From Bacillota bacterium (GTDB lineage: Bacteria > Bacillota > Clostridia > Peptostreptococcales > Anaerovoracaceae): a DNA stretch of 45,453 bases. Every line of letters begins with the position of its first letter. Position 1 is the first letter of the stretch. Shown piece after piece: positions 3,825-7,694 of this stretch. The stretch covers positions 1-45,453 of the forward strand of contig JALENF010000066.1 of the NCBI GenBank assembly GCA_022767945.1, in the 5' to 3' direction. Made by a program: the position numbers and the translations under genes. Under the pieces are notes generated by a model. The model was not told the origin of the DNA, made no database searches, and saw only the letters and a list, made by a program, of their open reading frames with translations.

Positions 3825-5420
3825 TTACAGTTCCTCAAACAGCCTGGTTCCTCTCTTTTTCAGCCAGAAATACAGTGCTGCATCCAACGCAAGTATAATC
3901 ACTCCGCAGATTCCCAGAAAGGCTTCAGCGGAAACCAGATTGCGAAGCAGATAGTACAGTCCGCCCAGGGCAATTACAAATACCCATCCGCCCATCAGGC
4001 TTACGAACACACCCATGCTCTGCTTTACAGGCACTGTCTCGTTGGTCCACTTCAGGTTAGGTGTCTTCAGGTTTACCGCCAGACCAAACAGTGCAACCAG
4101 CAGCATGAACAGAAGCGGCAGCACAATAACGTAAGCGGTAACTGCCGCAGTCGGGTGCATAGCTATAATGACGCACACCGAGCAGAATACTACAGGCAGA
4201 GTTGTAACAGCTATATGCAGATTCAGCTTCGCCTTAAGCACATCCCAGGCCGAAACAGGCAGAGACTGTATCAGCCACAGGCTCTTGCCCTCCAGAGAGA
4301 CGGACGGAGCCGTTATGTCGTTCATGGATGCCATCATGCAGATTCCGGCACACATGATCAGTGACAGCAGAGGTGAATCCTGAGGAAAGATTCCTAGGAG
4401 TGAGTCGGCTTTGATAATCAGGAACACTCCTCCGGCAGGCAGCAGCAGGGTTCCCAGTCCGCAGTTGAGCATGTAGGTCGAGCTTGATGTAAATCTTGAC
4501 CTTTCTTTAAATAGCAGTGCTGACCCGATGTTTCTCTTCTTTGACGCGCCATGTCTGTAGGCTTTCTTTCCGGAAGTGCCCTTTGCCGTCGCAATGGAGA
4601 TGAAGCTCCTGCTCATAACATAGCAACACAGTGCAAACAGCAGAATAACTGCGACAGTTACTGCGACAGTTCCAGTCAGACTGCCTTCGCCCATTCGTCC
4701 CAGAAGGTACAGCGGATATGCCGCGCCCTTTATCTTCACGCCTATGGTCACTGCATTCTCCAGAACCTTCTGCAGCAATACGTTTGCCTTGAAATATACC
4801 CAGTAATACAGCGCGATAAACACTATGGTGAGCAGAACCGAAACATAGCTTTTTCCCTTTAACCTGGTGCTTATCTTTGCCACACCCCATCCGAGAACGC
4901 AGGACAGGGTAAGTATAAATACAGATATCACAAGCATCAGAAATATGTCGTCTATGACTATCCACGCCGAAAGCTTTCCGATTCCGGACATGTTCATCCA
5001 GTATACGATGAGCGCAGGTATGAACACTATAGCCTCGTAAATCAGGCTCCACAGCCATACACCGGCAAGACGTGCAGCCAGAATTGCAGACGGCTTCACC
5101 GGCAGAGACAGCAGCATTTCGTTGTCGCGTGCCTGATACATGGTTGCGTTCACATTGAAAACACTGCCGAAAACGCCCAGCATTATTGCCATAAATGCCA
5201 TCATCACAATGTACATCCAGCCCAGATCAAGCATTACAAAGGTCTCGCACATCATGGTTCCAACACCGAAGAAAACAGAGCCCAGTGACGCAAAGATAAC
5301 AAGCCACATGATTACCATGGCAGCCATCTTTCCGGCGGAACGACGTTTTCCGCTTTTCTTGTTTAATATAAGCCAGCTGTTAATCTCCAGCATCTGCTTT
5401 TTTAATAATACCTTATACAT
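3825..5420 (-). CDS. ABC transporter permease (exporter type)
   Basis: 531 aa polytopic membrane protein; partner of the ATPase at 6963-7694, separated by the IS110 element. Confidence 0.75.
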   Translation of the reverse strand: MYKVLLKKQMLEINSWLILNKKSGKRRSAGKMAAMVIMWLVIFASLGSVFFGVGTMMCETFVMLDLGWMYIVMMAFMAIMLGVFGSVFNVNATMYQARDNEMLLSLPVKPSAILAARLAGVWLWSLIYEAIVFIPALIVYWMNMSGIGKLSAWIVIDDIFLMLVISVFILTLSCVLGWGVAKISTRLKGKSYVSVLLTIVFIALYYWVYFKANVLLQKVLENAVTIGVKIKGAAYPLYLLGRMGEGSLTGTVAVTVAVILLFALCCYVMSRSFISIATAKGTSGKKAYRHGASKKRNIGSALLFKERSRFTSSSTYMLNCGLGTLLLPAGGVFLIIKADSLLGIFPQDSPLLSLIMCAGICMMASMNDITAPSVSLEGKSLWLIQSLPVSAWDVLKAKLNLHIAVTTLPVVFCSVCVIIAMHPTAAVTAYVIVLPLLFMLLVALFGLAVNLKTPNLKWTNETVPVKQSMGVFVSLMGGWVFVIALGGLYYLLRNLVSAEAFLGICGVIILALDAALYFWLKKRGTRLFEEL

Positions 5421-5428
5421 GACTTACT

Positions 5429-5695
5429 TGTATGATGATTATAGAAGCAAAATCATCATATTTCCTTTCTTTTTATATCGTGGTTTAATACAACTCAGAT
5501 ACTGTGGACTTTTAATGACTTTTTGTAGCTTTGACTACTCGACAGGAGTGTATTGCCGCTACCTTTATCTGAATTGTTTATTAGCTGGATGTTTCCGTAA
5601 GCTTTTGCTTATGAGTACTTATTTCAATCAAGTCTACGATGATAATCGCTGGTGGATATCACGGTATCAGACTTTAGAAAGGGAGGTATAACCTC
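5429..5695 (+). ncRNA. candidate bridge RNA region of the IS110 element (boundaries unknown)
   Basis: Non-coding 267 nt between element left end and transposase; nested helices CAGATA(5496-5501)/TATCTG(5566-5571), GTAGC(5525-5529)/GCTAC(5558-5562), ACTC(5537-5540)/GAGT(5546-5549). Location as for bridge RNAs of the IS110 family. Confidence 0.5.
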
Positions 5696-6862
5696 ATGAT
5701 TTATGTCGGCATTGATATTGCCAAACTTAACCATTTTGCCTCAGCTGTTTCTTCTGATGGCGAAATACTCATTGAGCCGTTTAAGTTCTCTAACGACAGT
5801 GATGGCTTCCATTTGCTGCTCTCTAAACTCGAGTCTTTCGATAAGAGCAGCCTCATCATTGGTCTTGAATCCACGGCACACTACGGTGACAACCTTGTGC
5901 GATACCTTGTTGCTGAGAATTACAAAGTGTGTGTTCTTAATCCCATCAAGACTTCTGTTATGCGTAAAAACAATGTTCGCAAGACGAAGACTGATAAAGT
6001 CGACACTTACATAATTTGCAAAACTCTTATGTTGCAGGATTCCCTTAGATTCGTATCATACTATGATTTGGATCTCATGGACCTTAAATCACTCGGACGC
6101 TTTCGTCAAAAGACCATTAAGCAACGCACTCGCTTGAAAATTCAGCTGACTGCTTATGTTGATGAGGTCTTCCCTGAACTGCAGTATTTCTTCAAATCAG
6201 GCCTGCATCAGAAATCTGTCTATGCGCTTCTCAAAGAAGCTCCAACACCGGAAGCAGTTGCTTCTATGCATATGACTCATCTGGCTCATCTACTCAAGGT
6301 CACTTCCCACGGTCACTTTGATAAAGAGACAGCTCAGCAGTTAAGAGTTCTGGCACAGAAGTCTGTCGGTGCTTGCGACAGTGCTTTATCTATTCAGATA
6401 ACTCATACAATTGCTCAGATTGAGTTATTGAATAATCAGTTAGAGAAAGTTGAAACTGAGATGACTGAAATCATGAAATTCAATGATTCTGTCATCATGA
6501 CTATTCCGGGTATCGGTTACATCAACGGCGGAATAATCCTTGGTGAAATCGGTGATATTCACCGTTTTTCCAGTCCCAACAAGCTGCTTGCATATGCCGG
6601 CTTAGACCCTTCAGTTTATCAGTCCGGAAACTTCCAGGCTAAGAAAACCAGAATGTCCAAGCGTGGATCCAGAGTCCTGAGATATGCACTTGTAAATGCA
6701 GCACACAATGTTGTGAAGAACAATGCTACCTTCAAGGCATACTATGATGCCAAGATGGCAGAAGGCCGAACACATTACAACGCCCTTGGGCATTGTGCCG
6801 GCAAACTCGTCAGAGTCATCTGGAAAATGCTTACTGACGAAGTAGAATTTAACCTCGACTAG
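5696..6862 (+). CDS. IS110 family transposase (DEDD N-terminal domain plus Tnp_20-type C-terminal domain)
   Basis: '[16 protein letters not shown]' N-terminus, '[45 protein letters not shown]' C-terminal domain; RBS GGGAGG. Confidence 0.95.
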
Positions 6863-6962
6863 AGGTCTGGATATTACTAGATAGCCCTACTTGAAAGCGC
6901 CTGTAAGGGAGCTTTGTTAAAGTTACCCTTTTTTACCATGAAAAGATTTTTTAAATTTCCAG

Positions 6963-7694
6963 CTACTTTAGGCTTGACTTTTCATAGCTGGTCTCCTCCA
7001 GTTCCAGGAATACGTCCTCAAGTGATGTATCTCCCTTGACATCTTCCATTGTACCGGATTTAATCAGACGGCCCTGCTTGATTATCGCCACCTTGTCGCA
7101 CAGCTTCTCGGCAACCTCCAGAACGTGAGTCGAGAAGAAGATGGCACTTCCGCTGTCGCAGAGTTCACGCATCATGCCCTTCAGCAGGTGTGATGCCTTA
7201 GGGTCAAGTCCAACGAAAGGCTCATCCATCAAAACCAGCTTAGGCTGGTGTATCAAAGCTGATATAATGGCAAGCTTCTGCTTCATACCATGTGAATACT
7301 CTGAAACGGACTGACCCAGAGAATCTGTCAGTTCGAAAGCATCCGCATATTTTTTTATTCTCTCATTCCTGTCCTTTTCACTGATTTCGAAAATGTCAGC
7401 GATAAAATTAAGGAACTGGATTCCTGTCATGAATTCGTACAGATCCGGATTGTCCGGAATGTAGGCTATATCCCGTTTGCATGCAATCGGGTCGTCTTTG
7501 ATCGAGCGGCCGTTAATAAGAATATCGCCCTGGTCAAAATCCATAATGCCTGTGCACGCCTTCAGTGTCGTTGTTTTGCCTGCCCCATTATGGCCTATGA
7601 ATCCATAGATTTCACCTGCCTCAATATGCAGCGACAGATCATCAACTGCCTTCTTTTCACCATACTGCTTGGTTAAATGTTCGATTTTCAGCAT
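6963..7694 (-). CDS. ABC transporter ATP-binding protein
   Basis: Walker A GHNGAGKTT, signature SHGMKQKL, Walker B LVLMDEP. Confidence 0.95.
   Translation of the reverse strand: MLKIEHLTKQYGEKKAVDDLSLHIEAGEIYGFIGHNGAGKTTTLKACTGIMDFDQGDILINGRSIKDDPIACKRDIAYIPDNPDLYEFMTGIQFLNFIADIFEISEKDRNERIKKYADAFELTDSLGQSVSEYSHGMKQKLAIISALIHQPKLVLMDEPFVGLDPKASHLLKGMMRELCDSGSAIFFSTHVLEVAEKLCDKVAIIKQGRLIKSGTMEDVKGDTSLEDVFLELEETSYEKSSLK

What the first reader, a model, noticed from the sequence alone, without database searches (positions are those of the whole stretch)
5429..5695. Putative bridge RNA in the 5' non-coding region of the IS110 element
Established: IS110-family recombinases (e.g. IS621) use a non-coding bridge RNA with target- and donor-binding loops encoded at an element end. 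Seen: 267 nt non-coding upstream of the transposase with nested helices (CAGATA/TATCTG, GTAGC/GCTAC, TGATA/TATCA). Short exact matches to element ends and flank: TAGCTGGA (5582-5589) is the reverse complement of TCCAGCTA (6958-6965), which abuts the right CT core; ATGACTT (5515-5521) equals flank 5419-5425; ACTTTAG (5671-5677) equals the reconstructed target A-CT-TTAG. Each 7-8-mer could be chance and I could not fit them into one consistent guide model.
Basis: partly seen in the sequence, partly recalled or inferred. Interest (0 to 1): 0.7.

Follow-up and report, generated by a model that had tools for sequence, protein, structure and literature searches.

The report
Bridge RNA aimed at ribosome-binding sites
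A small bacterial jumping element makes a guide RNA that sends it into the ribosome-binding site just in front of genes, and its own end seems to carry a spare ribosome-binding site so that the gene it splits can still be read.

Summary
Comparison with about 68 related elements gives: element between CT cores 5427-5428 and 6993-6994 (not 6966); IS110-group DEDD recombinase with all catalytic residues; a covarying five-helix RNA at about 5498-5668; left target guide 5515-5524, right target guide AGGAG 5544-5548, left donor guide 5582-5588; a circle-junction promoter TTGACT-17-TATGAT. The left target guide covaries with the target only in the expected register; the left donor guide matches the element end in 59 of 59. 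Here the insertion splits the SD of an ABC permease; four congeners show the empty site. The element's left tip, read outward into the split gene, carries a near-invariant SD (GAAAGGA) and a hairpin conserved on the outward strand: a likely replacement 'split' ribosome-binding site. Bridge RNA and SD targeting are well supported; rescue of the host gene is inferred. No paper describing it was found.

The parts
5427..5428 (+). left CT core
   Evidence: boundary of conservation in the homologues
5429..5695 (+). left end (LE), non-coding, holds the bridge RNA
   Evidence: about 80-89% identical in close homologues, starts at the same base
5431..5436 (+). -10 box TATGAT of the promoter formed when the ends join in the circle (TTGACT-17 nt-TATGAT)
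   Evidence: sequence; conserved in homologues; same arrangement as IS621 (PMC11208160)
5431..5460 (-). left-tip hairpin, read outward (arms 5431-5440 and 5451-5460)
   Evidence: present in nearly all tips; substitutions keep pairing on the outward strand
5461..5470 (-). outward SD-like AGAAAGGAAA, proposed replacement ribosome-binding site for the gene at 5420..3825
   Evidence: CCTTTC in 67 of 68 tips, 2-8 nt from the hairpin; mostly unpaired
5498..5668 (+). bridge RNA core, closed by P1 5498-5506/5660-5668; P3 5556-5559/5652-5655, P4 5565-5569/5641-5645, P5 5574-5577/5636-5639
   Evidence: count on 60 sequences
5515..5524 (+). left target guide AUGACUUUUU; pairs with bottom strand of ATGACTTA-CT (5419-5428)
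   Evidence: register-specific covariation
5525..5538 (+). P2 stem-loop GTAG...CTAC between the two target guides
   Evidence: GC to AU compensatory change in 10 sequences
5544..5548 (+). right target guide AGGAG; pairs with top strand CT-CCT (6993-6997) = the SD
   Evidence: near invariant; first letter covaries with target (Fisher p 0.0045)
5582..5588 (+). left donor guide TAGCTGG; same letters as left donor 6985-6991
   Evidence: C/T letter agrees with donor in 59/59, at least 4 changes on the tree
5629..5632 (+). right donor guide CAAG; complementary to CTTG at the left end
   Evidence: invariant on both sides, so no covariation; inference
5696..6862 (+). IS110-group recombinase, 388 aa; D7, E58, D100, D103, S310
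   Evidence: Pfam; alignment with IS621 8wt6
6974..6979 (+). -35 box TTGACT of the circle-junction promoter
   Evidence: conserved
6983..6985 (-). ATG in the right end, 7 nt behind the host SD left at the right junction; opens a 5-codon ORF MKSQA
   Evidence: ATG in the 74 right ends matched, stop after 4-5 codons in 58
6985..6991 (+). left donor sequence TAGCTGG
6993..6994 (+). right CT core, true right end
6995..6999 (+). right target CCTCC, the host's SD (GGAGG on the minus strand)

Best explanation
This is an IS110-group insertion sequence whose left end encodes a bridge RNA. Its target loop is programmed with a generic translation-initiation site: the right target guide AGGAG reads the Shine-Dalgarno, and the left target guide (consensus A-T-T-T-T-T-n-C plus the core) reads the spacer and the AT of the start codon. 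The recombinase-RNA complex therefore inserts the circular element between SD and ATG, with its left end toward the gene. The insertion takes the gene's SD away. The element's left tip, transcribed outward as part of the gene's mRNA, supplies a new SD (GAAAGGA) about 42 nt from the ATG; a hairpin between them shortens this to about 12-16 nt, as in the 'split' ribosome-binding sites of phage T4 genes 25 and 38. Shown by comparison: the element ends, the RNA fold, guide-target and guide-donor covariation, SD targeting, and outward-strand selection on the hairpin. Inferred: RNA-guided catalysis by this protein, expression from the circle junction, and rescue of translation of the split gene.
For: Bridge RNA: 26 pairs in 5 helices, 98.1% of cells paired, 45 double-change cells against 8.4 shuffled, collapse when slid by one column. 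Left target guide agrees with the flank only in register 0; window 7/8, L048 8/8. Left donor guide 59/59 with at least 4 changes on the tree. Catalytic D7 E58 D100 D103 S310 line up with IS621. SD targeting: 59/61 insertions have ATG 5-10 nt from the core and 55 of them an ORF of at least 40 codons or open, against 9.5% of GGAG and 15% of AGGAG sites. Empty site SD-ATG in four congeners. Replacement SD: CCTTTC in 67/68 tips. On the tree the partners of the two -10 A's change at least 7 and 11 times (mostly A:T to A:C, i.e. outward U:G; 7 rows A:A), the partner of G once, the partners of three T's never; interior mismatches A:C 29 against G:T 3, while the bridge RNA helices, on the other strand, show G:T 142 and A:C 5. 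Split RBS precedent: PMC3014915. Targets include purM, an AICAR formyltransferase (PurH-type), guaA, mnmG and ackA.
Against: No expression or transposition data. The genome is a draft MAG with one full copy, so copies in one genome could be compared only in [Eubacterium] infirmum (5 copies), where the left flank varies with one guide. Guide-target agreement is partial (4.2 of 8 letters against 3.6 shuffled). Some SD bias could come from survival rather than guidance. CCTTTC can also pair with the transposase's own SD in the inward transcript. Two more distant families (G039, G046) that seem to leave the SD with the gene still carry an outward AAAGGA near the tip. A second GuaA C-terminal-like gene exists in that genome, so the guaA case does not prove rescue. 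The right donor guide could not be tested.
Confidence: 0.82

Rival explanations
1. Bridge RNA with SD targeting is right, but the left tip is not a replacement ribosome-binding site: CCTTTC pairs with the transposase's own SD (AGAAAGG, about 5676-5682) in the inward transcript and lowers transposase translation.
For: CCTTTCT is complementary to AGAAAGG before the transposase ATG (sequence); both are conserved in the close group.
Against: The hairpin next to it is conserved on the outward strand, not the inward one. In the distant G039 and G046 families the tip is AAAGGA-like while the transposase SD reads GAGGT / GGTGAT, so pairing would fail.
Confidence: 0.2
2. SD enrichment reflects survival: the guide only demands CT-CC, and insertions elsewhere are lost because they break genes.
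For: Background GGAG/AGGAG sites already show 10-15% SD context; insertions into coding sequence are counter-selected.
Against: 59/61 in one orientation with a narrow spacing (5-8 nt in 55); the left target guide carries AT at the place of the start codon and covaries with the spacer. Survival alone would also leave insertions in other intergenic CTCC sites.
Confidence: 0.1
3. The non-coding left end is only a promoter and leader region without guide function.
For: It carries a junction promoter half and leads into the transposase.
Against: Covarying fold and guide-target and guide-donor covariation.
Confidence: 0.03
4. The tip hairpin is a transcription insulator or terminator against inward read-through.
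For: Inward, the hairpin is followed by a pyrimidine tract (TTTCCTTTCTTTTT).
Against: The tract is broken by near-invariant CC, and pairing is selected on the outward strand.
Confidence: 0.08

Closest known systems
IS621 (IS110 group) and its bridge RNA (PMC11208160, PMC11208158; PDB 8wt6)
   Same: DEDD recombinase with catalytic Ser; non-coding long left end; CT core; circle-junction -35/-10 promoter; target loop with left guide, stem-loop, right guide; donor guides matching the element ends.
   Different: IS621 inserts into REP sequences (own knowledge); here the target is the SD/start codon. [quoted passage not shown] The left tip carries an outward SD and hairpin. Only distant protein similarity (phmmer E 1e-17).
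ISEc21 seekRNA (IS110) and the IS1111 seekRNAs (PMC11187229)
   Same: NCR-derived RNA with short matches to both target strands; in the IS110 type the bottom-strand match comes first, as here.
   Different: Different targets; no SD targeting is described there.
Split ribosome-binding sites of phage T4 genes 25 and 38 (PMC3014915)
   Same: SD too far from AUG, brought to working distance by an intervening hairpin (27 to 11 nt, 22 to 5 nt).
   Different: Here the split site would be made by transposon insertion and carried by the element's end; not tested in the laboratory.
More distant IS110 elements of the same order (G037, G049, G039, G050; 29-44% aa identity)
   Same: Insert at SD-like sites before ATG (or GTG/TTG) starts.
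   Different: Different registers within the SD. G037's 29% family leaves the SD with the gene and has no outward SD at its tip. Read by eye, not tested statistically.

Membership tests
IS110 family, IS110 group | DEDD RuvC-like domain plus Tnp domain with catalytic Ser | tested here: met
   PF01548 2.8e-41, PF02371 1.1e-27; D7 E58 D100 D103 S310 align with IS621 D11 E60 D102 D105 S241
IS110 family, IS110 group | long non-coding left end upstream of the transposase | tested here: met
   267 nt left end against 130 nt behind the ORF
IS110 family, IS110 group | dinucleotide core at both ends, no long terminal inverted repeats | tested here: met
   CT at 5427-5428 and 6993-6994; homologues likewise
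IS110 family, IS110 group | circle-junction sigma-70 promoter | tested here: inconclusive
   TTGACT-17-TATGAT conserved; circle and transcription not observed
bridge RNA | conserved secondary structure in the left end | tested here: met
bridge RNA | left and right target guides match target DNA around the core and covary with it | tested here: met
   left; right: (weaker, one letter)
bridge RNA | left donor guide matches and covaries with the element end | tested here: met
   59/59, at least 4 changes
bridge RNA | right donor guide covaries with the left end | tested here: inconclusive
   CAAG/CTTG complementary but invariant
bridge RNA | handshake guides beside the right guides | tested here: inconclusive
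   UG after AGGAG does not pair with donor GT (sequence); not tested across the family
bridge RNA | RNA binds the recombinase and directs recombination | not testable with these tools
   needs biochemistry
Rfam families | match to a curated RNA family | tested here: not met
   no hit at gathering; only chance-level hits
split ribosome-binding site (T4 gene 25 type) | SD plus hairpin upstream of AUG with structure-dependent initiation | tested here: inconclusive
   anatomy and strand-specific conservation met; translation not testable

The most novel reading that the evidence does not exclude
A clade of RNA-guided IS110 transposons has evolved guide RNAs that read the generic translation start signal (SD, spacer, AT of ATG), and carries at its left end a replacement split ribosome-binding site, and at its right end a start codon that takes over the orphaned host SD, so that insertions inside ribosome-binding sites of housekeeping genes are tolerated.
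Probability: 0.55. Interest if true: 0.87.

Novelty: new variant of a known kind. Interest (0 to 1): 0.74.

Why it matters
Bridge RNAs are known to be reprogrammable, but what natural guides aim at, and why, is little charted. A family aimed at the Shine-Dalgarno would have a very large number of sites per genome in one fixed orientation relative to genes, and an element end that rebuilds the site would be a way for a transposon to insert in front of important genes without harming the host. It offers a natural set of guide-target pairs, a compact recombinase for gene-start insertion, and a direct test of split ribosome-binding sites.

Tried and rejected
Rfam gave no family. The single-sequence fold was uninformative. 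RNAalifold on the short tip alignment failed because of gaps, so pairs were counted per sequence. GACTACT (5532-5538) was first considered as the left target guide and rejected: it forms P2, and the segment 5' of P2 is the one that covaries. Whole-genome family searches by NCBIfam name failed and were replaced by protein queries. Handshake guides: no convincing match. Literature searches for IS110 or insertion sequences with Shine-Dalgarno or ribosome-binding sites found nothing relevant in the held library; most subscription papers and all preprints are not held.

Full report
Element. The ORF 5696-6862 is a DEDD recombinase of the IS110 group, related to IS621 and ISCro4 with all catalytic residues aligned: D7, E58, D100, D103 and S310. 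One full copy lies in this draft genome. Eighty related loci (57-94% amino-acid identity) were collected. Their left ends begin CT-TGTATGAT and their right ends finish CTTGACTTTTCATAGCTGGT-CT or a close variant; identity stops there on both sides. Joining the ends gives TTGACT-17-TATGAT, the circle-junction promoter arrangement known from IS621 (PMC11208160).

RNA fold. Sixty left ends were aligned. Five helices (P1 to P5, coordinates in 'parts') are paired in 98.1% of cells with 45 double-change cells against 8.4 in shuffles, and fail when slid by one column. P1 encloses everything. Left target guide, stem-loop P2 and right target guide follow each other as in the IS621 target loop, and P3-P5 lead to the donor loop. 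CAGATA/TATCTG and GTAGC/GCTAC are not supported.

Target guides. The letters just 5' of P2 agree with the left flank more than shuffled pairs do (4.21 against 3.60 of 8, p about 2e-4), only in register 0, and also for the 37 distinct guides (1 in 20001 shuffles; without the two best cases 61 in 20001). In the window the guide ATGACTTT faces ATGACTTA. In [Eubacterium] infirmum ATCTATTT faces ATCTATTT. The right target guide is N-GGAG: TGGAG guides face an A at the paired position more often than others do (5 of 11 against 3 of 46, Fisher p 0.0045). L068, the only element with AGAAG, is one of three with T at the matching target position.

Donor guide. AG[C/T]TGG in the RNA equals AG[C/T]TGG at the right end in 59 of 59 elements (44 C, 15 T), with at least four changes on the protein tree (three independent pairs on supported branches, too few for a sign test). 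The right donor guide CAAG faces CTTG, invariant, so untested.

Where it inserts. Of 61 homologous insertions with a left flank, 59 have ATG 5-10 nt from the core on the strand reading away from the element, 55 with an ORF of at least 40 codons or open to the contig end. Only 9.5% of GGAG and 15% of AGGAG sites in the same flanks do. The target read on the gene's strand is AGGAG-N6-ATG, with the cut between SD and ATG. In the window the split site is GGAGGAG-TAAGTC-ATG, at the junction of an ABC ATPase (stop in LELEE*) and its permease. Four genomes of the same genus have the two genes joined without the element...LELEE* or LELEA* with GGAGG just before the permease ATG. The insertion changes the ATPase tail to LELEETSYEKSSLK. 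Target genes elsewhere include mnmG, guaA, xthA, ackA, an AICAR formyltransferase (PurH-type), purM, a leuD-type gene and hemW. mnmG is single in its genome; guaA has a C-terminal-like paralogue.

Left tip. Read outward, the tips are GAAAGGA (67 of 68 with CCTTTC on the plus strand), a hairpin, then CAAG and the gene's own spacer and ATG. The 5' arm on the plus strand is the -10 box and is fixed. The partner letters facing its A's change at least 7 and 11 times on the tree, mostly T to C; the partner of its G once; the partners of its three T's never. A:C on the plus strand is U:G outward, so pairing is kept on the outward RNA only. The bridge RNA helices, on the opposite strand, show the mirror pattern (G:T 142, A:C 5). 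The SD is predicted mostly unpaired (mean 0.83) and lies about 42 nt from ATG, commonly 12-16 nt with the hairpin looped out (the looped-out value scatters where other folds win). Phage T4 genes 25 and 38 use such split sites (PMC3014915). That the split gene is still translated is an inference.

Right tip. The host's SD stays at the right junction and now faces ATG at 7 nt inside the right end, opening MKSQ(A/V)*: ATG in the 74 right ends matched by the pattern used, stop after 4-5 codons in 58 (the search pattern itself required CAT, but the unfiltered list shows it in every right end as well). The ATG overlaps the left donor, so its conservation may have another cause.

Wider group. Elements with 29-44% amino-acid identity in the same order also sit at SD-like sites, in other registers. 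This was read by eye on a few copies and is a lead.

Limits. No transcription, binding, transposition or translation data; draft genomes; relatedness inflates some counts; literature coverage is open-access only.

Noticed in passing
6962-6994, minus strand: Right end supplies an ATG 7 nt behind the host SD and a 5-codon ORF (MKSQA*); 4-5 codon ORF in 58 of 74 homologous right ends. Possible ribosome decoy or a by-product of donor and promoter constraints.
   Followed up: partly
L113-L119, L122-L124, L144-L148: Distant IS110 families (29-44% aa identity) insert in SDs in different registers; the G037 29% family leaves the SD on the gene side and lacks an outward SD at its tip.
   Followed up: partly
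5477-5492: A second conserved -10-like element (TTTAATAC / TATAATA / TGATATAATCA in homologues) lies about 10 nt before P1 and could be an internal bridge-RNA promoter active in the integrated element.
   Followed up: no
6963-7020, minus strand: The insertion replaces the ABC ATPase stop and adds TSYEKSSLK to its C-terminus.
   Followed up: yes
5590-5620: The stem-loop between the donor guides varies strongly in length and sequence and is nearly absent in distant homologues.
   Followed up: no
G002 contig 1, 3-197: A 94% identical C-terminal fragment of the transposase sits at a contig end in another species of the genus, so the element is probably present there too.
   Followed up: no
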